Shown: positions 492-44,100 of the stretch, piece after piece | Position numbering within the stretch: the stretch's first letter is position 1 | How the letters are laid out: every line of letters starts with the position of its first letter | Assembly: GCF_026151205.1 (NCBI RefSeq) | Contig: NC_087075.1 | Location: 6,094,858-6,158,857 of the forward strand | Direction of reading: 5' to 3' | Length of the DNA stretch: 64,000 nt | From: Bolinopsis microptera | Taxonomy: Eukaryota; Ctenophora; Tentaculata; Lobata; Bolinopsidae | Translations under genes and position numbers: made by a program | The notes under the pieces: model-generated | The model's database searches: none | Told to the model about the DNA's origin: nothing | Seen by the model: only the letters and a program-made list of their open reading frames with translations

Positions 492-2605
492 ATCTCTAGC
501 TATCCGTACCTCTAGCCATTTGTTTTATTAGTAGCTGTTAGCTATTCCAGTTATTTCTATTCATTTAAAATATAAGCCTTTTTACTTGGTCAAGCCATGA
601 ATGAGAGATTAGAAAACTAAAATTTCAAATATTATTTCACTTGGATATGAAGAAAAAGCCATCTTTCTATAGATTTCAGGGCCACAGGCCAAATGCCAAA
701 AGTTTGGTTAACAAAAAATTTAGCAGACGGAAAAGATTTATGCAATTAATTTGGTCTGCAAAAAATTTGGGCGAGAGGCCCGCTCAAATTTTTTGTCGCC
801 CAAATTTTTGGGAATTAAGGTATTTTAATTTGAAAAAACTTAAGTCACAGAATAGTTGACCTCAAGTTTATCCTATCTTCGTAATTTGGTGAATGGTAGG
901 CAGGTAGTAACAAACGCAAGGATAAATTCAGGCTAAATTTGTTGTTTAAAAATATTTTTTATAAATAAGTAAATTTGAGAATGATAGTGATACACACTAC
1001 ATTTCATCATATCAATAGTCGATTTGTGCAATACAATATTACTATAACACTAATATCTTAATATCTGCTGTTTTGCAGCTGTTAAATTGGTCATTGTTCA
1101 ATCAGCAATCTCTCGTGTGGTGTTTATAATTAATGATAATCAATAACTGAAGAATAAGAGCATCATTTTTCAGCCACTTTTTAAGTTGTAGCACTGCATC
1201 ACACGCTTTATGTTTTGTTAGTCTGGTCTAGCCACCAGTTTTCCCATGAACCAGAGAGTACACCTGGAAGTGCTTGTCCGTATCTTGTTATCCCAGGTGC
1301 TTTTAGAGAAGATCGCTTATATTATAATTAACTTTGTCATTGTGGTGTTGTTATCACCGTGCTGACGGTCACCACGATTCCATTTGATAACGGTAATTAA
1401 CATTGATATCACTTTTTTTCGTTTGGAAAGAAGAGACATTGGTGACGGTTCAGTCTACCAAATTTAGGGTTTTAGAAAACAATTTATCATTTTAATTTAT
1501 CAGTTTCAAATTTTGAGATCAAGATGAGCTGCCTGCACAATTTTATGATGCTCAATTTTATGATGCTAATCATTTTCATTTTCTACGACGTCAGATTTGT
1601 AATATGCATCATACAATCACTCTCGAGCTATAATTATATATTTTCTAATACCCAATCTCCCGGTTAAAGTTATATAAATTCCATTCTCACATTTCTTGTG
1701 CTGTATCTAGTGTATCTAGTGTATCTAGTGTGGCCTGAATGTAAAATATACCATACCCTATAATCCGAATATATAAATCGCAGTACGCAGTGAGTGTCCG
1801 CATTATATCTTCAATTGTGTTGTTATATTATATTGTGTTATTATTATATAGTCTGAGTTAGCACTTAGCTGAGCACCATGAAATTTTCGGGGATTTAATT
1901 TTTGTGGATAGACGAGTGCATGATTTCTTGTTACTATGCTATCTCATATCAAACAGCTGTTTGTTCGACAACATCCCTGTCCGCTTTATGTGTGTTATAT
2001 GTTATTAAAAGTAACGCGTTAAAATTTGACGCATATAAACAAAAGTTAAATTCAAATTGTATAATGTTACAACTTTACTACTAGTTCTTTATTTAGGACG
2101 GTGTTTGGTTCCGCCCTCCTGTCATGTCCACTGTTCATGTTACTGTTGTGTCCACCCTTCTAGTATAGTACCACCCTCGTGTCTTCCGCTTTTGTGTCCA
2201 CTGCCCTCGTGTCCGGTTCCCTTATTTTCTCGATCAATTGTCTCAATCAGCCTGAAAACTTTGATGCATCGAGTACTGCCTCATATCATTTTACATTTAG
2301 AAGGTATAGATTGTACTTTGTAGACAAGTTATAAAACTTTTCACTTCGTTGCCTCATGGGAACGCAGAACCGTATGAAAGTTGTGCAGTTCTCTTACAAG
2401 TGTGCTTTTCTTGTTAACTTGTTCCAACTCCGCCTGGAGTATATTATTCCGTTTTGAGTGTCATTACGTCTGGTTTATAGTTCAAGCTTCTTGACCTTGT
2501 TGTAGCTTTTTGTGACTTTAATCTGCAAGACAATCGCCTATGTACGTCTTTCATGCTGAAAACTTTTAGGTGAAGTTTCAAGCCAGTAGCTTGATCCAAA
2601 TCTTC
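492..2605. other. non-coding, AT-rich; one dispersed ~100 bp repeat
   Basis: No convincing exon is visible. A segment at 1689-1796 (starting ACATTTCTTGTGCT and ending CGCAGT.AGCAGTGAGT-like) recurs in diverged form at 11476-11568 in the same orientation. A short TGTATCTAG triplication sits at about 1710-1730. The stretch just before 2570 (CTTTTAG) looks like a possible splice acceptor for the sulfotransferase 5' UTR. Confidence 0.4.
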
Positions 2606-3850
2606 ATGGCGCTGCAATTCCACTCTAGACGGAACAACGTCCGAGTCTATCTCCGTTATTCCTGCGGGGTATTCCTGATGATTTATGCTATTATAATGGT
2701 AACCAGCATAATACCCGAGGAACGGGATTCTTCAGACGAATCTGATGTTAAAATCAACATTAAAATTACAACTACAAGAGACCCGGCGTTCGATCTAATT
2801 CCAAATCCTCACCACAAGCTCATTGTCTTATTAACTTCATTCAGAGGGGGCTCAACATTTCTTGGGAATGTTTTTGATATAAACCCAAAACTTCAATACT
2901 TGTACGAACCATTTTCTGGTGGACATATCCAAAATATGTATGAGAAAGGATGGATCAACGGTGCTAGAGTCGACCATACTCCATCGGATCTGAAAATGTT
3001 ATATATCCAACAGATTTTACACAATTGTTCTGTTCATGGAACTCCTTTTCCAGAGAGGCACGAATTTTGTGGAACCCCCGAAGAGAATCTCCATCGGTTA
3101 AACTCCACCACATGCAACACTAAAAACTGGATAAACGGGGCTGGCCACCAGGAAATATGCAGGTACAGAAACGTAACGGTCATGAAAGTAATACGTCTCC
3201 CAGTCCTATCAGATATTCTCAAAATATCCCAGATAAGATCTGCTAACATTTATATAATCCATCTCCTCCGGCATCCCTCACCTGTACTAATGTCCCGCCG
3301 TACTGGCGGAATGTTTTACATGTGGCAACACGCATCACACAAATCAGTGGAAGTTGGTGATGATTCAGAGAGGCGAGTCAGGATAGCTTGGGAAGCTTTC
3401 AACTACGGTAAAGATAATCTAGAATCTTCTGAGTTCGCAGCAAGTCATCGCTGGTTGAGGGGAAGGTACTTTCAGGTTACTCACAGAGATATGAGTTTGC
3501 AGCCTCTTAAGACTGTTCAGAGAATGTATGATTTCGTTAGGGAGATTCTTACTGATGAGGTGAGAGATTATATTGTGAGCATTACAGATGGATCACATGT
3601 GGCTGATGATGCTCAGACTGTTAATAAAGATAATAGTGTTATGAGAATTAAAAAGGACGCATTAGAGGTCCGCAAGAATTCAAGTGAAGTTGTGGATGCT
3701 TGGAAAAGGTTTTATACCAGAGTGTATTATTGGGATGTTATTTCAATTGAGGCTCAATGTAGATCTTTGTTTAGATTGATAGGGGATGACCAGTTTTCGG
3801 TGGATGGGATGTCATTGAGCAAATTGAAAACGTTGTATTTTGTAAATTAA
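2606..3850 (+). CDS. carbohydrate sulfotransferase (GlcNAc/Gal 6-O-sulfotransferase-like family), single coding exon
   Basis: A 414-residue type II membrane protein read from the ATG at 2606; it is also open upstream, but no earlier in-frame ATG is seen. A hydrophobic anchor spans residues about 17-36 (YSCGVFLMIYAIIMVTSII), followed by a short stem. The 5'-phosphosulfate loop of PAPS-dependent sulfotransferases is clear at about 76-90 (LLTSFRGGSTFLG), with YLYEPF after it, and the 3'-phosphate-binding segment is at about 213-230 (IIHLLRHPSPVLMSRR). Together these match the Golgi CHST1-7 group, which transfers sulfate from PAPS to the 6-hydroxyl of sugars on glycoproteins or proteoglycans. Exact substrate cannot be told. 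Having no intron in the coding part is common in this family. TTTTAG at 2564-2569 suggests a 5' UTR intron. Confidence 0.88.
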   Translation: MALQFHSRRNNVRVYLRYSCGVFLMIYAIIMVTSIIPEERDSSDESDVKINIKITTTRDPAFDLIPNPHHKLIVLLTSFRGGSTFLGNVFDINPKLQYLYEPFSGGHIQNMYEKGWINGARVDHTPSDLKMLYIQQILHNCSVHGTPFPERHEFCGTPEENLHRLNSTTCNTKNWINGAGHQEICRYRNVTVMKVIRLPVLSDILKISQIRSANIYIIHLLRHPSPVLMSRRTGGMFYMWQHASHKSVEVGDDSERRVRIAWEAFNYGKDNLESSEFAASHRWLRGRYFQVTHRDMSLQPLKTVQRMYDFVREILTDEVRDYIVSITDGSHVADDAQTVNKDNSVMRIKKDALEVRKNSSEVVDAWKRFYTRVYYWDVISIEAQCRSLFRLIGDDQFSVDGMSLSKLKTLYFVN

Positions 3851-5548
3851 ACTGACTGGTACATATTTAACTTTAATGATGTACTAACTAATTTATTGAT
3901 TGAGTTATTGTTTTATTTTTTCAACTTTGTACAACTCTTTCTCAATCACTGGCGACAGAAAACTGTAATGACAGCTCGCGTAAATATATATTCAAATTAT
4001 CCACGAGTAAGATAACATTTAATTTGATAAATATCGTATATGGACACGTTCATTGAAGTTTGAGGATATTGGTAAATATTAGTGACCCTACTAAATGGCA
4101 CGATGATGTAAAATTTGTCACACTATAAAACTATATAAACCCTCAATGGTTAGGATAATCGTTTCATCCTCTAGATAAACTTTGTCGCATAACGATATCT
4201 TTATCAGACGATAAGTTGCCGTGTTTGACCAAATTTTCGAATTTCCATTCTATAGGATAGTTGCATATGACTATTATCTACATATTTAGCGACTTTTTTC
4301 GTTAAATGGTTGCACCATGTAAACTCCGTCACACATTTAAGAAATTTATATGAGGGATGTTTATGACATCCTGACAAGAAATGCAGAATAGTCTAGCATT
4401 ATTTTGTGAGCTGATTGTGTTTGGAATTGTTCACATATTTCATTGTTATAGGCAAATACAAATACAGAAGGCAGAAATGGGTAAACTTTGTCACATACAT
4501 TTGTATGATATCTCAACATATGTGAAATTGAGTAAATATTAGTATACCAACTTAAACACCCTATATTACGTACTATGGATCAATTAACAATATTTGAACC
4601 ACACACCGGTCATATAAATTATTATATGGCAGTGATATGTTAACATTGGCAAAATTTCAACACCTGAACATGGTAAAAATTTGTAAATTTCGTCACAAAA
4701 AAAATATGATAACTTTATTTGCTATTTGTTGGCAAAATAACTATTTTATCGACATAGGTATGGTGATAAAGTAAAATTATATCCTATTCGAGGTATGATT
4801 CTTCAAAATTGGGTGCAAGAAATGTAAATTTCGTCACATCAGCCCTTGCATTAGTTAGATAGATTTTCTTTCATATCAACAGTCCTTATTATAGTTAGAA
4901 TGGATTTATACAGGAAATATAGAAACCCATGCCAATTTTTCATCACATTGAAATTATACTGTTGGGGCAGGAAAAGTAAATTTCGTCACATTTCAGTAAC
5001 TTAGTAAAATTAAACTCAGCATTGTTAAACTTGAGTTCTAGTTTGCTAAACAATAACCAACCAATAATTCCTGGAAGAACATTGAATTCTAACCGAGGTA
5101 TGGTTCTTCAAAATAGGGTCAAGAAACGTAAATTTCGTCACATACGAGTACGTCATTGTAAAATTTAGATACAATTTCTTTCACGTGAACAAGGCACAAA
5201 TACCTGATAACACCTGGAACTCAGATTACGATCTTATCATGTTTGCTTTGCAACTCATGGACACCCAGGTAGGAAACTAGTTACTAAGTAACGTGGTTAC
5301 CTGGCCTAGTAACCGAATTCTAACCGAGGTATGGTTCTTCAAAATAGGGTCAAGAAATGTAAATTTCGTCACATATACATACGAGTACGTCATTGTAAAA
5401 TTTAGATACAATTTCTTTCACGTGAACAGTCCTAATTACAGTCCGAAATGATTAATACAGAGATACAGGAAATATAAAAACCCCTGCCCATTTTATAATG
5501 TATGTAATAATATGTTAATCACAGACTATTTCATTCTATAATCATTGT

Positions 5549-5888
5549 TTCCAAATTTAACCTATTTACGATGTCATTTTGTGACGATGTTTACATCAAC
5601 TGCCCTATACTTGAATCAACTGTATCCGTGTATCGTCCTTATATAGAGTTTTCCCGCAAAATTTAACTTATTTACGATGTCGTATCATTTTGTGACGATG
5701 TTTACACCAACTGCCCTATACTTGAATCAACTGTATCCGCGTATCGTCCTTATATAGACTTATAGAGTTTTCCCGCAAAATGTAACCTATTTACGATGTC
5801 GTATCATTTTGTGACGATGCTTACAACAACTGCCCTATACTTGAATCAACTGTACCCGTGTATCGTCCTTATATAGAGTTTTCCCGCC
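5549..5888 (+). repeat. tandem repeat, three copies of ~106-119 bp
   Basis: Units begin at ATTTACGATGTC at 5564, 5670 and 5789. Each holds CATTTTGTGACGATG, ACTGCCCTATACTTGAATCA and a TCGTCCTTATATAGA..TTTTCCCGC tail. A diverged fourth copy is visible at about 8309-8400. TATATAGA followed by TTTTCCCGC resembles a core-promoter string, but nothing transcribed is seen next to it. Confidence 0.75.
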
Positions 5889-6233
5889 TTCCAAACCAAA
5901 ATCAGATATAAATGATTCACCCAGAATTTCAAATTCCATATAATGTGACAGAATTTACATCATTTCCCAATATAACCAAGTGCATGTATTTGCTAACTTT
6001 TCAAAACAACATATTTTAGGGCTATGATTAGTTATTATAAGAGTTAGGTAATCGTCATCAGATTAACAGATCTTTTTTTTGTAGTTTGGATCGATTAATA
6101 TAGGCAATTAAGCATCATATATCAATTTTAACACACTATCTTGATATTGTTGGGGCAGGGAAAGTTAATTTTGTTACATTTTCAGTGTCTTTGACAAATT
6201 AATCTAAAATTGTTAAACTTGAGCTCTGATGTT

Positions 6234-7525
6234 CTAAGATGAGAAGTATGTATCATACGTACTTTTCAAAGTATCGCACAAGTACGTACTTTTAAAATAC
6301 TGCGGAAAAGTACGCAGATACAATAATGTAGTGCACGTGTCAAATTTTCGCGCGGTTTTTAAAATTTCGCGCGATTTCAGAGTCTTATAAGTTGTAGATC
6401 ATCAAAGAAGAGTTGTAGCGAGAGTTTTACAGCTAGACTGATGAAGTTTGACAGCGGTATCGCCCTGAGAAAACTCGAGCATTACAGGCTAAATGTGGAC
6501 AGCGAGGGGCTCAATTTATACACCGAAGTGGATTCGTTGCAGAATCTACCAAATCCTATGTTGTATTGGAGATACTATAGCCCACAGAGTTATGAGGTTC
6601 TCCATTTGATCGCTAGAAAAGTTTTTAGTGTTCTGACTTCTTCCTCAGTCTGTGAACAAAATTTTAGAGACATGGAGTATATCTACTGCAGTAGAAGACT
6701 ACGCACTAAGCCTGAGAGATTCAACAAATTGATCTACATCTACTCTAATGCAAAACTGAAACGTTAAAGGCAAGACTATTATCGGCTCGAGAATTGAGCA
6801 TAAATAGTCGACTTCTATCCAGAAATGGGGGTCAAACACTAAATCTTTAGCGCACTCAAACAAATTCTTGTATGCATTACTTTTATTGCTAACAGACTCA
6901 GTAAGGGTTGGATCAATATAAGTCTAAATCAAAGTATCCTTGGAACCCTTCAGTCTCTCCAACATAATAAACTGGGTGGCAAACCGAGTTTCCCCTGAAG
7001 GCCTGGCAATGGAAACGCTAGTACTTTGCCGGATAATTGGGCTATGTCCGGCATTTTAATTTCATAATAGCAATTAACGTTCATTATGTTCCGAACGTTA
7101 AAATCTTTTAGCGAACGCGTTCACAAACTATTTTTAGTGAACGTTCCGTACGCGGTACGTTCACTACAACTAAGGTTAAAGCTGAAAATAAATTTGATCT
7201 GTTGAAATGATGATGCTAGAAAGTTCATTGTTTTTTGTTTTGATGAAATGATGAAGCTTATTAAACTTTCTTTGTTATCTGCGATTGAGTGTTTCTATTA
7301 TCTCCATGAATATGGCTTTCAAAACCATCATGACAATGAAATTTCAATCGTGGAAGTCGGGAGTTTCCAATAAATAAAACGTCGGATCTAAAAAAAGTTA
7401 CATCGCGCCTGTGAAAATAAGTTTGAAAATTTTTTGAATCGTACACTGAGGTATCATACGTACTTTTCAAAAGAAAGTACAAGTACGTACTTTTCGCCCG
7501 GTATCATACATACTTCTCATCTTAG
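6234..7525 (+). mobile_element. hAT-type DNA transposon, internally deleted, 8-bp target duplication
   Basis: Element ends are inverted: CTAAGATGAGAAGTATGTAT at 6234 and its complement ending at 7525, with a further GTACTTTTC block inside each end. It is flanked by CTGATGTT at 6226-6233 and 7526-7533, an 8-bp target duplication as made by hAT transposases. The neighbouring repeat copy at about 7830 shows the uninterrupted target, so the borders are firm. The 1,292 bp interior codes only for the C-terminal transposase segment at 6441-6767, so the copy is not autonomous. Repeated ATCATACGTACTTTTC-like strings near both ends (6250-6300 and 7450-7510) are probable subterminal transposase-binding repeats. 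Confidence 0.88.
6441..6767 (+). pseudogene. hAT transposase C-terminal (dimerisation) remnant
   Basis: A 108-codon open segment. Its middle reads WRYYSPQSYEVLHLIARKVF then VLTSSSVCEQNFRDMEYIY and SRRLRTKPERFNKLIYIYSN. That is the order of the hAT C-terminal dimerisation domain: a Trp, a hydrophobic helix, SS..CE..F, R.RL.P and a final helix ending in Asn. The catalytic RNase-H-like region is absent, so this is a fragment left after internal deletion, still intact as a frame. It lies inside the hAT element with perfect 8-bp flanks. Confidence 0.8.
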
Positions 7526-18082: not shown

Positions 18083-18454
18083 ACAGTCTAGATCTTAACT
18101 TGGAGCCACAAGGCCAAGGGTAATTTTTGATTTTTTAGGAAACTTTTTTTAAATTCTTAAAGGGTAGATTTTATATAGGGTCATTGCTATATTATGTGTA
18201 TATTATTTGAATAATTTTATAAAAAAATAATCTCACCGAAAGGTTTTCAGAAGTGGTGAGTTTAAATTTTAGTTGAGATTGAGTCCTGTAGAGAATCTAG
18301 TTATTGTGAGAGTGGGGCTTTTTGCATCTGGCTTAAACAGGGTGGTTTCAATGATAATGGTTGGAGTCCTTTAACTTGGGTGTTGCTTGAGACCATGTCC
18401 ATTCAAAATTAAAATGTTCATATCGTCCATTACTAACACATCAGACACTCTTCT

Positions 18455-19363
18455 CACAGTGGGCCACCAGGCTATATTAGGTCCAAAAATGAGTTTGTCA
18501 GTTTAAGATGTATTTTAAATAATCTGATGGGAAAACTGTTCCCCTACAGAATGCAAAAAACCGAAATTAAAAATTCCATATAGTTTAACCGCTACGCGGC
18601 CGCGAAATTTGCGATTTTTCAAAAATTGATTTTGTTTCTTTTTGGCAGTGAAAAATAGCTCTTACTCTATGTCTGTTCCTTAAATAAGATTATATAAAGT
18701 AAATTGTCTCCTTTTACATCTCAAAACAACTCTCAAATCTTAATTTATTGAAAAAAACCTTAATAGGCTATCTAATTTAGCTGATTTTTGACATGACCCT
18801 GAGTTTTTGTCCCATTTTTAGGCAAATTTTTGGTCTTCCAGACCAAAAATAGTTGTTAGGCCGCAATAGGCCGCCATATTCCATAGTACCATCTGAAAGC
18901 TTAGAGGATTCCCTACAATATAGTAGAAAAATCTACTTGGGGAAACTTGGGGATTATTTTAAAATGCCGATTTGTTACCAATTTATTGGCTTAAACTATG
19001 TTATTTAGGGCTTATGCCCAAATATGGGCATACATATTTTTGTTATAACTCGGCCATCTTTTGTTCAATCTTGATGAAATTTTAAATACTAGTTCTGAAA
19101 GCCTTTAGCTACAAGTAAAGCATTTCAAAACTGATTTTGTGGCTTGTGTAAGGAATTTTGAATTTTTGGGCATTTTGGGGCTAAAAATTCAAGGAGCATA
19201 ATTCAAAAATCCCCAATTTTCTCAGTTTTTGTGTATAGTAGGGTCTTGAAATTGGTTTTGATCGTTTTTTTGGGTCAAAGCAGTCTACAGAACACCTTTC
19301 AGACATATTTGGATGGTACTAACATGTCTAATATAGCCTGCCCCCCTATTCTGGCCCACTGTG
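18455..19363. mobile_element. non-autonomous TIR element with Transib/RSS-like ends and 5-bp target duplication
   Basis: Both ends start CACAGTGGGCCA; a second shared block CAGGCTATATTAG follows after 6 bases beyond the heptamer on the left and 16 bases on the right. CTTCT flanks the element on both sides (18450-18454 and 19364-19368). A 5-bp duplication and a CACAGTG start are the features of Transib transposons, the relatives of RAG recombinase. The 909 bp interior is AT-rich and shows no gene. A hAT element was considered because CAGTGG is also a hAT-type start, but no 8-bp flanking repeat fits. Confidence 0.65.
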
Positions 19364-19556
19364 CTTCTTTTACATGAAATCTTTTTATTAACTGCTGCAC
19401 CAGATTTGATGAAATGATGATAAAATAGACTCTCTATATTTAGGTATATTGCTTTAGGCTGGACTTCAGTCCGCATTTGAGCGCACTTTCTTTAAAGTGT
19501 CTTGTCCGCATGCCGCTCTAAATCTTACTGTCAGTCCTCCTGCACTACATGTAAGA

Positions 19557-30434: not shown

Positions 30435-37674
<7,240 letters not shown>

Positions 37675-38109: not shown

Positions 38110-41100
38110 TCACACTTCAGAACCGAGGAACCTTTTCTGCTTGAATAGCTCTGGTTTGGAGTGTTCAGGATAATGTTTAGGATCTCCGAGCATTTTCCCT
38201 TTCAGTGGATCGTATGTTGACATAATAAGTGCGCCTCCAAAGGTAGCAACAAAGAGGTATGCAACGTTAGCTTGCCTGAAAAAACCAATCATTAGTATTT
38301 ATACATTTTAAATGATTATAAATAACTAATAAGTATTGATGATGATGAAAATCTTTTAAAAATAACTGGCTACAATGAGCATTTTAATAACAATAAATAG
38401 TAGAGATCAAAAACCTTAATTTCCAATAGAGAAATTTATAGAAACACACCTAACAAATTTTACCCTGCTAACAGCTATTAAAAAACATTAATAGTTTCGT
38501 ATAAAAATTATGATCTAAACAATTACTACCCTTCAAAAATTAATAAAAATGTTTATGTAACAAAATATTTGACTTTACCAGTCTCTTGACGTTTCAAAAT
38601 GAAACTGAGGTTGAAGATGCAGTTACAAAAGGCCACTGGTTCTTAATGGTTACTGAAACAAACTTTATCCAAAATAAAAGTTTTAAAGCAGTCCATATCT
38701 GCTTTCCTGTGAACTGAACAGCTCAAATAGAAAAACTCATTCCCTTGTTATTAATATAACAATATTTAGTTTAAAGGTGATTGTTTTCAGATAAACATAG
38801 TCCAATAACACTATACTACACTTCAATATGCTTGGTATTTAATCCTTTATCATAATAGTAGCAAAATTAGCAAAATTAGATGCTATAATAAAGCCTTATC
38901 TTTTCGAAAGATTTATCTTCCGCTTAAGATTTAACCCCTCGCTTTCTACAATTTTAACACACACACTTATAAATATATCGTCCCTTGAGCAGTTTAGTAT
39001 GATGGAGCCCTGCTCAGTTGCTAGATCGACTATGGGCCTACCACTGTTGCACAGGGTGATGATTCGTTCCGCTTGACATTGTAGATTTGTGTCCACAAGC
39101 TCACAACTTGATAGTAGGTGCAGTGCTGTTTGCTCATCCGAGCCACAGATGCACAGCGGAGAGGCCGCTGCTCTGTCAACTCTGAAGAGAAACGAGTTCA
39201 GTAGATTGTTCTTGTACATGAGACTCATAACCAATACTTCCACTTCGCGGCTCACTCCAAAGGGGATGGGAAGGGGGTTGCAGGAGACTCTTGGAATATC
39301 AGACCATCCTTCCATAAGTAGTAGGTTTTGTAGACTTTCTTGCCAAAGTAGCTCTGTGAACTGCTGTATCATTCCCTTGGTGTACTTGTAAGTCTTTGGG
39401 GATAGTAGCAGAATGTGGTCCAGGTTTCTGTGGCTGATTTCACCGAAGTCACAGGCCTGAACTTCTGTGTTAAAATGTTCTGCTTTCCATTGTAGGAACT
39501 TCTGCACCTCTCGGAGATGACAGAGCACTGTTGGGTTCTTTTCATTTAGCTGAGTTTTCACAAAGTCATAGTGAATGTCATTTGAGTCATGGAGAACCTT
39601 GAGGTAGTGTTTGATCGAGATTATTCTTCCCAAAGTTTGGAGTGGTAGCACACCCAGAATGACTTCCAGTATGGCCCCATGGACGTTGAAAACAGCTCCA
39701 ACTGCAGCTTTAGACACTCTGTACCATAGTTTGTTTATGTCTGACATATTTGAATTGTTCATCCATATGGTAGAACCATAAAACAAGGTCGAGAACAGAA
39801 TTGTTTTGGTCACTCTCACTATAACTGCTTGGTTCATGCCCCAGTTTCTGTTTGCATAACGGCTCATACAAACCCAGCGATATACTAGATTGTTGTGTAC
39901 ATGCTTGCTATGCTGTTTGAAGGTTAACTTACTGTCCAAAATGACACCAAGAACCCTTGTCTGATCCGTTAACTGAATTGTTTTCCCTCCAAGGTTGAAT
40001 GAAGTCGGGACTCCAGCATGATCATAGCAGTTGAAGCATATAATTTCAGTCTTATTTTTGTTGCAGTTAATAACCATGCGCCAACAAGAGGTCCAATATT
40101 CAATGCTGTCCATAGCCAGGTTGAGATAGAAAAGGCACTCTTCCAAGTCTCTACCAACCACTTTCACCGTACCATCATCAGCGAATTTTAACACACTTAT
40201 TTGTTGGTACACTGAACAGACTGCCTCAATATCCATAATGAAGAATTTGAACAAAATAGGAGACAGCACAGATCCTTGTGGTAACCCATAGTCCAAGCAG
40301 TCCCTAACAGGGCCAAGGAATCCATTTATTAATAGGCACACTGTGCGACCAGATAGAAAACTGTCTATAGTTTTTAGGTAACAGCCATGAACACCAGCTC
40401 TCCAGAGCTTAACAATTAGACCTTTTTTCCAGACGGAATCAAATGCCTTTTCGAAGTCGATAAACAAGCAAAGTACCGTAAGCTTCTTTATAATATCACC
40501 TTTAATACCAACAGTCAGTCGATTGAGGTATCTAATAGTATTCTTGCCTTTTGAGAATCCTTCCTGATTTACATCCGTAAGTCCCACTTTCATAAGATAT
40601 ATATCAAGTCGTCGTGCCAGGATTCGTTCAAACAGTTTCCCTACATATGAAGATATTGAAATGGGCCTGTATGCACCTGCTTGGGAGTATGATGACTTTC
40701 CGTCTTTTTTGAGAAACACAATCTTAGAATCGTTCCACAGCCAGAGCCCATTTCGCAGGCAGAGTGTAAAAAGCTTGCTTAGTGCATGAATTGCAATCGG
40801 ACCTAGTTTCTTTAGCATAGACTGATGCACTTCGTGGTTATCAAAACTGGCGGCTGTTGATTGAATGCCTTTCAGAGTAGCAGAGACCTCCCATGGTGTA
40901 ACAGGGCAATAAAGGGTGGAGCTGTTGGTAAACCTATCTGCCATTGCCTCAGTTGCACTGGGTTGAAAGTTTCTGTATTTTATGTCATCATACAGTTTGT
41001 TTATATCCTGAAAGAAAGCATTATCGAATTTATCGATATTATTTTCGATGTGTTTAGCCTGGAAAAATGTTTCAAACATTTCTTTCTCAATGTCAGCATT

Positions 41101-44100
41101 TCCTGTAAGAATAGTTCCATCCTCCGATATAAGAGCTTCAACCATCTGATCTGATGGGGGTTTGAAAAGCTTATTAAACTTCTTCCAGAACTTTTTTGCC
41201 TGAGAAGTGTTAAGGTCCTTTGTCTTTCGAAGAATAAACTGCTGACATGCCTGCTTTCTTGCTTCCTCAAATTCTTTCTTGGAAGCCTGCAGAGCTTCAA
41301 AGGCTGAGTCAGTATTTCTGGATAGATATGATTTGAGATCCAATCTGAGTCTTTCAGAGAGTAGTGATAGCTTGGGGGTCCAGTACGGTTTGCTGTGTTT
41401 GGAGACACATTTCATTTGGCAGTTTTCTTTTGTGGAAACATCAATAGCTGTGTTAATGGCCTCCAGCAGTTCCTTGATAGTCCCATCAGTAGCTAAGCTG
41501 TAAATTTTTTCAATTTCCAGGTCAAGCTCTATGTCTCTAGTCCAGTTGAACCAGTCCATTGATTTAAGGTTATACTTCTTAACATTCTCTGACCTGATTG
41601 CGACAGGTTGTACTTGGATATTGATTGAGATTGGGACATGACCTCTCAGGGGAGCCCCACTGTACAAATTAGCAAAATGATCTGCAATTGGATGATCTAG
41701 ATATTTATCAAGTTGAGTGGATGTGATAAAAAAGTCGATATGACTGCTACCATTCCTTGCCAAAAATGTACTTGAGGAAGATGCATGCACACAGAACTTA
41801 GACCAGTCTAGATGTTCTTCAATATATTTTCCGTACTTATTTACCACAGTATCATTCCAAATATAATGGCGAGCATTAAAATCCCCCATAGCAATCACAC
41901 CTGCACATTTGTAAAACCTACTCAGTTCATTTGCCTTATCAAGCATTACCAGCATCTCTTTGACACCTGATAGATAGTCTAGTTTCAGGTAAAGGTTCCC
42001 AATTATGTACCTCTTGCCGTTCCAAGATAATATTCCCCAAACCGAGTCAATATTGGATGAAATATGTGAGATAACAGGAAGCTGTGTGAACATGACTTCT
42101 TGTTTAACAATAATTGCACATCCTTTGTTGCTATTCTTATTTGTATCTTCAAAGGTTTTCATGTTGGTTAGTGATTTCCACTGGCTGCTACTACCAGTCT
42201 CCTGCACACCAAAAAGAAGAATGTTGTTATCAGACGCATACTTGCTTAGCATCATGTTGCTTCTTTGAGATAGACCACAGATGTTTATTGTGCAGAATTT
42301 TCCAAGCACAGTGTTATTTTCAGCATTTCCGATTGAGTTATGATTTTTGATCATAATGCATCATGGGAGAACTTAGCCAATTTCTCTTTGTACACTGCAC
42401 AGTCAAAAGAACCTGCTTGATGATCTTCCTTGCAATGTGCACATTTGAAGCCACTAGTTATTGGACAGCTATTGCTTTCATGGTTTTCTGCACATTTACC
42501 GCACTTAGCTGGTTTGGTACAATATCGGTGAATATGTCCCCAACCTTGGCACTTATTGCACTTGATTACCCTAGACTTTCTTTTGTACTCTTCAACTATG
42601 TAGCGTTGATGGCAAAACTTTATCTTGTCTGTTATAACTTTTGTCATTGCTTCTCGTGATGAAAATTCTAGTTTGATCATTCCATTGAATGATTTATCAG
42701 ACCTCTTCTGTTGAAATTCACACTTAGTGATTATACCAGGGTAATTCTGCATAATATCCTTCTTCATATCATCCTCGTTGTGATCATCATACACATGCTT
42801 AACCATGGCAACAGTGTTATAGTCACCTGGTATTTTCATACCTTTATTACCACCAAAATGACTGGTTTTCCAGTTAGACTGCACAGTTTTAGCTGTGTTT
42901 TCATCCTCAAATTCAAATGTGATGGAACCTGATGCCGTTAACCTACAATGTTTGATCACCATGCCTTGGTAATGCTGATTAAAAGCCTTACGAATATCAC
43001 GACTAGTCCTTATGGTAGTATCTTCTGGTCGGATAACAACTCTGGTACGTTTGAGTCGCTCAACATCGTCAGAGTCCTGTTTAGCTTTTGAAATCGATTT
43101 CAGACCCTCCATGACCTTTTGTGGGATAGGACTATGTTTGGAGATACCGTTTGAAACAGCTGCACTGTATAATGGTCCTTTATTTGCTGCCTGTTTTAAC
43201 TGTTTCTCGACAGTGGTAACTTTTACGGTAATAGCATCCACTTTACGCTCCATACGCTTCAACTTGGATAGAGCACTACCATAAACTGAGTTACACGGGG
43301 GGCACAGCACCTTAATGTATGTTGGAGAGTCACTAAGTGCTTTAAACAGGCTGAGACTAATGGGCTTTTCTGTGCAGTTGGTGTGAAAATACCAACCACA
43401 TCCACTGCATTCAATGCCAAGACCTGATGTATCCGAGTTATTTGTAACCTCTTTACAGCAAACAGAACATGGGTACATCACCTTACCCGATTCTGATTTA
43501 GCAAAAATTCCTTTTACCGTTCCATCTACTGATTCGAAATCAACAAATGTACCTTTTTTATCAAATACTGCCAAAGTGTTATCATTATCATGGTTACCAA
43601 TTCCTCTTGTGAAGACTTTGCTGCTGCGAAGAAGTTTGCGCTTTCCATCCTCGTCATAGCCCTCTGGAGCAGTCAGCTGGAATTTGGATAAGACACTATC
43701 AAGCTGAGGAGAGGTTAGTTCAGTTAAAATTAACTTTATAGGAGTAGCCATTCCGAACGCTGTCCAAAGTATGTGTTGATCCAAAGATGTCGAAACAAAA
43801 TTGAGAAAGATTTAACCCACCGGAGAGGTTCCGACTTGTGGGTCGGACTCCCTTTAAAGATTTAGATGAGAAGTGAAGAAAGGTCTTCAGTGACTGGTCT
43901 GGAGGCCTTGTCTGGTCAGAGCCACCGTTATAGCTTGTTTACGATTCCACTACTTGTACATTTCACATACCTCAAATTATTTGTTATATAGTAGTGTTGA
44001 AAGTATTAATAAGTAACAAACACGAATTAATCAATTTATTGATGTTACGTGATGATTCGAGTATCAAGAAGGTATCGTCTAAATTGACAAAAAGGAACAT

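What the first reader, a model, noticed from the sequence alone, without database searches (positions are those of the whole stretch)
18450..19368. Non-autonomous element whose ends look like RAG signal sequences, with unequal spacing
Seen: CACAGTGGGCCA at both termini, a second shared block CAGGCTATATTAG set 6 bases after the CACAGTG heptamer on the left and 16 on the right, and CTTCT flanking both sides. Known: Transib and RAG-like transposons make 5-bp duplications and begin CACWGTG-type; vertebrate RSS pairs have spacers differing by about one helical turn (12 and 23). Inference: this may be a Transib-family derivative with an asymmetric 10-base spacer difference between its ends. The asymmetry could equally be a small indel in one copy.
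Basis: partly seen in the sequence, partly recalled or inferred. Interest (0 to 1): 0.75.

Follow-up and report, generated by a model that had tools for sequence, protein, structure and literature searches.

The report
Transib transposon with unequal RAG-like ends
A small piece of mobile DNA, probably in a comb jelly genome, belongs to the transposon group from which our antibody-shuffling enzyme descends, and its two ends differ by one DNA turn, much as the antibody signals do.

Summary
Window 18455-19363 is a 909-bp element without a long reading frame, flanked by the 5-bp duplication CTTCT; a paralogous locus shows the empty site. The host genome (264.65 Mb; ctenophore-like by inference) holds five related short-element subfamilies. 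Of 58 complete copies examined, 57 have exact 5-bp duplications and 56 have the second block offset by exactly 10 bp between the ends (6 versus 16 bp after CACAGTG). In a census of 198 listed ends, all 80 inward-facing pairs join a short and a long end. The second block differs between subfamilies but changes largely in step at both ends. One 3927-bp relative with such ends encodes a RAG1-like transposase; a related protein matches HzTransib best in the PDB. A second, divergent Transib has a 9-bp end difference. So the asymmetry is a family trait, not an indel in one copy. It is not a new kind: asymmetric Transib ends are published (Tao et al. 2022; earlier fly and mosquito cases). What is added is a large natural data set for a one-turn pairing rule in an element without a visible RAG2. 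Whether asymmetry is required is not shown.

The parts
18450..18454 (.). left target-site duplication CTTCT
   Evidence: a paralogous empty site has one copy
18455..18461 (+). short end: heptamer CACAGTG
18462..18467 (+). short-end 6-bp spacer GGCCAC
18468..18480 (+). short-end second block CAGGCTATATTAG
18455..19363 (+). 909-bp non-autonomous Transib-type element; longest stop-free stretch in any frame 67 codons
19328..19340 (-). long-end second block CAGGCTATATTAG (minus strand)
19341..19356 (-). long-end 16-bp spacer GGCCAGAATAGGGGGG (minus strand)
19357..19363 (-). long end: heptamer CACAGTG (minus strand)
19364..19368 (.). right target-site duplication CTTCT

Best explanation
The element is a non-autonomous Transib transposon (MITE-like), moved in trans by a Transib transposase encoded elsewhere in the same genome. 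Shown: 5-bp target duplications, an element-free paralogue, many dispersed copies, one 3.9-kb relative with the same two end types and a RAG1-type transposase, and a constant pairing of one short end (second block 6 bp after the heptamer) with one long end (16 bp after). Inferred: the transposase dimer binds the CACAGTG tip and the second block at each end, cuts by the nick-and-hairpin route of this family, and inserts with a 5-bp stagger. Because the second block sits on the same face of the helix but one turn further in at the long end, the synaptic complex is asymmetric, and unlike end pairs are probably favoured, as with 12/23 signals. The confidence given is for the identity and the mode of movement; for a real preference for unlike ends it is about 0.6.
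For: 57 of 58 copies have exact 5-bp duplications and the remaining one matches 4 of 5. The window copy has an element-free paralogue with a single CTTCT, and removing L056 with one duplication restores a perfect 8-bp tandem repeat. L029 201-4127 has the same two end types, the duplication TATCT and two open transposase frames (374 and 406 codons) separated by what reads, by eye, as a GT-AG intron. Transposase P0002: HzTransib 6pqn E=1.3e-18, amphioxus RAG1L 6b40 1.9e-16, mouse RAG1 5zdz 7.1e-10; Pfam RAG1 2.7e-13. A subfamily C copy is 98.4% identical to L029 over the first 499 bp. All 80 inward-facing end pairs within 8 kb, among 198 listed ends, are short plus long. The second block at the two ends changes in step across subfamilies: 6 mismatches of 112 in eight hand-picked representatives, reached by 1 of 40,320 re-pairings, the true one. 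A divergent Transib (31% identity over part of P0002, L065) has ends with a 9-bp difference and the duplication TGGTG.
Against: The main-family subfamilies share colinear sequence, so the 80 pairs descend from few founders and are not independent trials. L003 has a 9-bp and L004 a 4-bp offset, and in L014 the blocks match only 8 of 14. 38 of the 198 listed ends are unpaired, and three fetched short ends (L061, L062, L063) have no recognisable partner within about 2 kb. No binding, cleavage or pairing preference was measured. The second block does not resemble the RSS nonamer in the main family. The independent lineage L065 is one complete element, and its difference is 9, not 10.
Confidence: 0.93

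Rival explanations
1. The asymmetry is a frozen accident: a founder element had about 10 extra bp at one end, all descendants inherited it, and the transposase tolerates either spacing.
For: All main-family subfamilies are related by colinear sequence, so one ancestral event could explain the pattern. L003, with a 9-bp offset, has a perfect 5-bp duplication. PMC7204232 proposes that invertebrate RAGL proteins are relatively insensitive to TIR asymmetry (passages).
Against: The extra segment differs in sequence between subfamilies (GAATAGGGGG, GTGAGTGGGGG, GCGAAGGGGGG and GCGCGGGGGGG types) while its length stays fixed, and the second blocks of the two ends stay close to each other (11 to 14 of 14 in 57 of 58 copies) although the block differs between subfamilies. 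An independent Transib in the same genome also has long and short ends, with the long end upstream of the transposase as in L029.
Confidence: 0.3
2. The two ends stay alike because of gene conversion between them, not because one protein must read both.
For: The blocks match 11 to 14 of 14 within an element in 57 of 58 copies, as conversion would also give.
Against: Identity stops sharply: in the six elements measured, the 30 bp after the block match only 5 to 10 of 30, and the extra segment was not equalised in the 58 copies examined. Conversion would be expected to equalise the spacers as well.
Confidence: 0.12
3. The element belongs to another CAC-type DNA transposon superfamily (CACTA/EnSpm, Chapaev, hAT or another).
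For: Termini that begin with CAC or CA occur in several superfamilies (recalled).
Against: The duplications are 5 bp in 57 of 58 copies, and the coding relatives match RAG1/HzTransib.
Confidence: 0.02

Closest known systems
Subgroup I Transib transposons (Tao et al. 2022, PMC9435367)
   Same: Asymmetric bipartite TIRs, a RAG1-like transposase, and a CX2CX3GHX4C C-terminal motif (the CTT* motif of PMC7204232; Tao et al. call that domain CTT1 and report it in Subgroup I).
   Different: Here abundant short-element subfamilies show a constant 10-bp end difference. Tao et al. report Transib-like proteins in ctenophores and name Mnemiopsis and Pleurobrachia Transibs in the figure legend, but the text I could read does not say which subgroup they are in, and the ends in Fig. 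1g could not be seen, so the same ends may already be drawn there.
Transibs with 12/23-like ends (Transib5 of Drosophila; Transib2, N1, N2, N3 of Anopheles; Kapitonov & Jurka 2005 as reported in PMC8355894)
   Same: Heptamer plus a second element with spacers that differ by about one helical turn; the N names denote non-autonomous families (recalled).
   Different: Spacers here are 6 and 16 bp to the shared block, and the block is not RSS-nonamer-like.
HzTransib (PDB 6pqn and related entries)
   Same: Best PDB sequence match of transposase P0002 (1.3e-18).
   Different: Described as having symmetric TIRs (PMC8289069 passages). The phmmer match breaks over query residues 218-380, where the query has about 49 more residues.
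RAGL transposons: ProtoRAG (27/31 bp) and AanRAGL (4/13 bp)
   Same: CAC ends, 5-bp duplications, asymmetric bipartite TIRs, RAG1-like transposase.
   Different: They carry RAG2L; the 3.9-kb element here has no other ORF of 120 aa or more.
Vertebrate 12-RSS and 23-RSS
   Same: Heptamer CACAGTG is identical to the RSS consensus given in PMC8289069; spacer difference of about one turn (10 versus 11 bp).
   Different: 6/16 not 12/23, no ACAAAAACC nonamer in the main family, and part of a mobile element.

Membership tests
Transib superfamily | 5-bp target-site duplication | tested here: met
   57 of 58 exact, the other 4 of 5 positions; empty sites
Transib superfamily | CAC-type RSS-heptamer-like termini | tested here: met
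   CACAGTG at both ends of 58 of 58 copies; the copies were found by end patterns that contain CACAGTG, so this row is largely by selection
Transib superfamily | RAG1-like DDE transposase in autonomous relatives | tested here: met
   P0001 and P0002 over the Pfam RAG1 cut-off; HzTransib best in PDB for P0002; motifs GFDG, LDRK and SEGG.E in P0002. That these hold the catalytic D, D, E is recalled
Transib superfamily | single gene, no RAG2 | tested here: inconclusive
   No other ORF of 120 aa or more in L029 201-4127; the genome search with Pfam RAG2 found nothing, but its controls rang nowhere either
Subgroup I Transib (Tao et al. 2022) | asymmetric TIRs | tested here: met
   56 of 58 copies offset exactly 10 bp; 80 of 80 inward pairs short plus long among 198 listed ends. 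Asymmetric TIRs also occur in part of Subgroup II, so this alone does not place the element
Subgroup I Transib (Tao et al. 2022) | CTT1 domain, motif CX2CX3GHX4C | tested here: met
   CKHCDMRGHSRRWC at residue 373 of P0001; motif from PMC7204232. P0002 lacks it (its 3' end is cut short)
Subgroup I Transib (Tao et al. 2022) | alpha11-alpha12 region of the zinc-binding domain present | tested here: inconclusive
   P0002 aligns in one stretch to amphioxus RAG1L over 112-554, but in two pieces to HzTransib; no structure made
Subgroup I Transib (Tao et al. 2022) | position in a transposase tree | not tested
   reference sequences not held here
RAGL (ProtoRAG-type) transposon | linked RAG1L and RAG2L genes | tested here: not met
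   only transposase ORFs of 120 aa or more inside the 3927-bp element
V(D)J 12/23 signal pair | 12- and 23-bp spacers with a nonamer | tested here: not met
   6 and 16 bp to the shared block; block CAGGCTATATTAG

The most novel reading that the evidence does not exclude
A strict one-helical-turn pairing rule, short end with long end only, is enforced by a Transib transposase working without RAG2 in a ctenophore-like animal. The core of the 12/23 restriction would then be an ancient property of the transposase that predates RAG2 and adaptive immunity, and the second block would be an evolving nonamer whose sequence has changed repeatedly while the spacing stayed fixed.
Probability: 0.3. Interest if true: 0.75.

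Novelty: new member of a known kind. Interest (0 to 1): 0.5.

Why it matters
How the 12/23 rule arose is an open question in the origin of V(D)J recombination. PMC8355894 states that 12/23 asymmetry is recognised only when RAG1 is with RAG2 (passages). An element family without a visible RAG2, with 198 listed ends, a constant one-turn offset, several natural second-block variants and subfamily C copies only 0.6% from their consensus, gives ready substrates to test whether the pairing restriction is older than RAG2.

Tried and rejected
Two long copies with matching ends (L001 5976 bp, L002 7436 bp) were first taken for autonomous elements; Pfam shows LINE-type genes, not a transposase, between their ends. 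Other transposase fragments (L064, L066, L067, L070) showed no end pair in the fetched stretches with the patterns scanned. L028 has a long end upstream of a 571-codon transposase frame but no short end was found downstream; read by eye, its 3' part runs into a zinc-finger-like stretch in another frame, so it was not counted as a complete element. The back-to-back 12-mers at C8:17854639/17854666 lie among other local CACAGTG repeats and lack the second block. An attempt to name the host from a glutamate receptor was inconclusive. The original Transib paper (PMC1131882) is not held. No transposase tree was made, because reference sequences were not at hand.

Rows dropped before counts. Of the 14 stretches fetched, L061, L062 and L063 have a short end but no partner and are not among the 58; L028 and L065 are not among the 58 either. 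In the census six of the 100 short-end rows (C5:2964662, C4:12277073, C11:1431332, C11:1757317, C12:3018664, C131:16039) and one listed row (C3:17657679) were left out as not family-like. One search lists 100 of its 103 matches. Five long ends were added. In the block comparison L003, L004 and L014 were left out of the mean, and the eight representatives of the re-pairing test were picked by hand after seeing the ends. In the divergence estimate L001, L002, L030 and L031 were left out for their length.

Full report
What is in the window. Window 18455-19363 is a 909-bp element flanked by CTTCT at 18450-18454 and 19364-19368. Both ends begin CACAGTGGGCCA. A second block, CAGGCTATATTAG, begins 6 bp after the heptamer CACAGTG at the left end and 16 bp after it at the right end. 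The longest stop-free stretch in any frame is 67 codons. Beyond the block the two ends are not alike (5 of 30 matches), so the ends are bipartite: 12 bp at the tip, then the block, with 10 extra G-rich bases at the long end.

It is a transposition product. The 240-base sequence made by joining the two flanks with one CTTCT aligns across the junction to a locus about 32 kb away (C4:6081140-6081344, 78% identity over query 1-202) that has one CTTCT and no element; a 10-bp gap in the left flank ends 11 bp short of the junction. Copy L056 sits in an 8-bp tandem repeat, and taking out the element with one duplication restores the perfect repeat.

Copies in the host genome. G000 has 264,652,675 bases in 232 contigs. 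The exact 12-mer has 78 matches against 17 for the reversed control. I fetched the 25 further copies that have this 12-mer facing inward at both ends, then representatives of related end types. They fall into subfamilies A (0.9 kb, the window's; 9 copies), B (1.1 kb; 17), C (1.1 kb; 20), D (1.26 kb; 6) and E (1.44 kb; 5); a few copies are longer because of inserts. Over 58 complete copies, which include the coding element L029, 57 have an exact 5-bp duplication and L004 matches 4 of 5 positions; 56 have the block offset by exactly 10 bp, with L003 at 9 and L004 at 4. The C copies were chosen because both end types had been listed nearby. The A and B copies were chosen by the 12-mer alone. The D and E copies were chosen by the short end alone, and all 11 had a long partner; three other short ends fetched with them (L061, L062, L063) had none.

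Pairing census. From I entered 104 long and 94 short ends. Inward-facing neighbours within 8 kb number 80; all 80 are one long and one short, none long/long or short/short; five other close neighbours are in direct orientation, and 38 ends stay unpaired. The copies share ancestry, so this is consistent with, but does not prove, a pairing rule.

The second block changes largely in step at both ends. Representative blocks run CAGGCTATATTAG (A), CATACTATAATAG (B), CATGCTAGCATAG (C and L029), CAGGCTATAATTG short and CAGGCTATAATAG long (D) and CATGATAGTTTAG (E); A and B have further variants. Within a copy the two blocks match 11 to 14 of 14 positions in 57 of 58 copies and 8 of 14 in L014. With eight hand-picked representatives the short and long blocks of the same type differ at 6 of 112 positions; of 40,320 re-pairings only the true one does as well. 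The extra segment of the long end differs in sequence but keeps its length. The simplest reading is that one protein reads both blocks and both follow it as it changes; that reading is inference.

Autonomous relatives. The search with Pfam RAG1 gave two candidates in the genome, both above the curated cut-off; it rang in none of 14 control genomes. One lies inside L029 201-4127, a 3927-bp element with duplication TATCT, a short end, a long end with 10-bp offset, and two open transposase frames separated by what reads as a GT-AG intron. A C copy is 98.4% identical to it over the first 499 bp, so C is probably a deletion derivative of such an element. The window element shares two colinear stretches with L029 on the short-end side, at 68 and 72% identity. 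The other match is in L028, whose 571-residue frame P0002 finds HzTransib (6pqn) at 1.3e-18, amphioxus RAG1L (6b40) at 1.9e-16 and mouse RAG1 (5zdz) at 7.1e-10 in the PDB. P0001, the larger frame of L029, carries CKHCDMRGHSRRWC, the CX2CX3GHX4C motif that PMC7204232 describes as defining CTT* of invertebrate RAG1L (passages). A search with P0002 found 43 matches in all, most of them short or broken by stops.

A second Transib lineage. One match to P0002 at 31% identity (C6:5382014) lies in L065 608-4955, flanked by TGGTG on both sides. Its ends are CACAGTG plus 18 bp plus CTGGAAAAAATCAAG upstream of the transposase, and CACAGTG plus 9 bp plus CTGGAAAGAATCAAG downstream: a 9-bp difference with an unrelated, A-rich second block, and again the long end upstream. 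One search finds both ends of this element and two further short-type ends elsewhere. This is the best sign here that a difference of about one turn is more than one inherited accident, but it is one complete element.

Host. Twelve contig lengths of 16.3-26.2 Mb (C1-C11 and C13) appear, and C12 reaches at least 11.8 Mb. These 12 sum to about 243 of 265 Mb, which fits 13 large contigs. PMC11797021 Table 1 gives Bolinopsis microptera 265 Mb and 13 chromosomes, though with 346 scaffolds against 232 contigs here (passages). A ctenophore host is therefore likely but inferred; the glutamate-receptor check did not settle it.

Comparison with what is known. Tao et al. 2022 (PMC9435367, whole text read without figures or supplements) report Transib-like proteins in ctenophores, define Subgroup I, state that all its transposons have asymmetric TIRs and that it has the CTT1 domain, say that Subgroup II has both asymmetric and symmetric TIRs, and describe an algal RAGL with 4/13-bp spacers. 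The text does not say which subgroup the ctenophore proteins belong to. PMC8355894 (passages) reports 12/23-like ends for some fly and mosquito Transibs after Kapitonov & Jurka 2005, which I could not read; three of these (N1-N3) are non-autonomous by their names (recalled). PMC8289069 (passages) gives 27/31 for ProtoRAG and calls most Transib TIRs symmetric. PMC4411706 was seen in passages. So asymmetric Transib ends with a difference of about one turn are known, in non-autonomous families too, and this is a new, unusually rich member of that kind. In the listings of my searches I saw no title on ctenophore Transib ends or on second blocks that change in step; most of those papers I did not open, and the library is partial.

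Mechanism and doubt. Cut-and-paste movement by a Transib transposase in trans is well supported. That the two ends must be unlike is not shown. A frozen founder asymmetry remains the main rival (0.3), because all main-family copies are related. Mean divergence from the subfamily consensus is 0.6% for C (18 of 20 copies), 1.3% for B (16 of 17), 1.6% for E (5 of 5), 2.0% for D (6 of 6) and 6.1% for A (8 of 9; the window copy 2.0%), so at least C moved recently and its ends are likely functional.

Noticed in passing
L002 (G000:C10:17814767-17822402), ORFs 520-2112 and 2940-6599: Between the ends of an A-type copy lies a LINE-like unit that encodes an AlkB-like 2OG-Fe(II) oxygenase domain (Pfam 3e-19) with a weak GDSL-esterase match (below cut-off) in one ORF, and PHD, endonuclease and reverse transcriptase in the next. 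One literature search for AlkB in retrotransposons returned a single orchid Gypsy paper, so an AlkB-carrying animal LINE may be unusual.
   Followed up: partly
L001 (G000:C10:475382-481557), ORF 1984-5112: A LINE-like ORF between the ends of a B-type copy holds a very long lysine-aspartate (KD) repeat between its endonuclease and reverse transcriptase matches.
   Followed up: no
L028 (G000:C2:19696500-19704456): A transposase gene with a long end lacks a recognisable short end downstream and, by eye, runs into a C2H2 zinc-finger-like stretch in another frame; a short end in the same orientation lies 902 bp away.
   Followed up: partly
G000:C3:2278539, 2278602, 2278670: Three long ends lie in direct tandem 63 and 68 bp apart, an end-derived tandem array.
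   Followed up: no
window 33911-34601: A tandem repeat gives repetitive open frames on both strands ([10 protein letters not shown] and [10 protein letters not shown] repeats).
   Followed up: no
window 38896-43784: A two-ORF non-LTR retrotransposon on the minus strand, judged by eye (endonuclease/reverse-transcriptase-like ORF of 1152 aa and an ORF of 477 aa with Cys-rich motifs).
   Followed up: no
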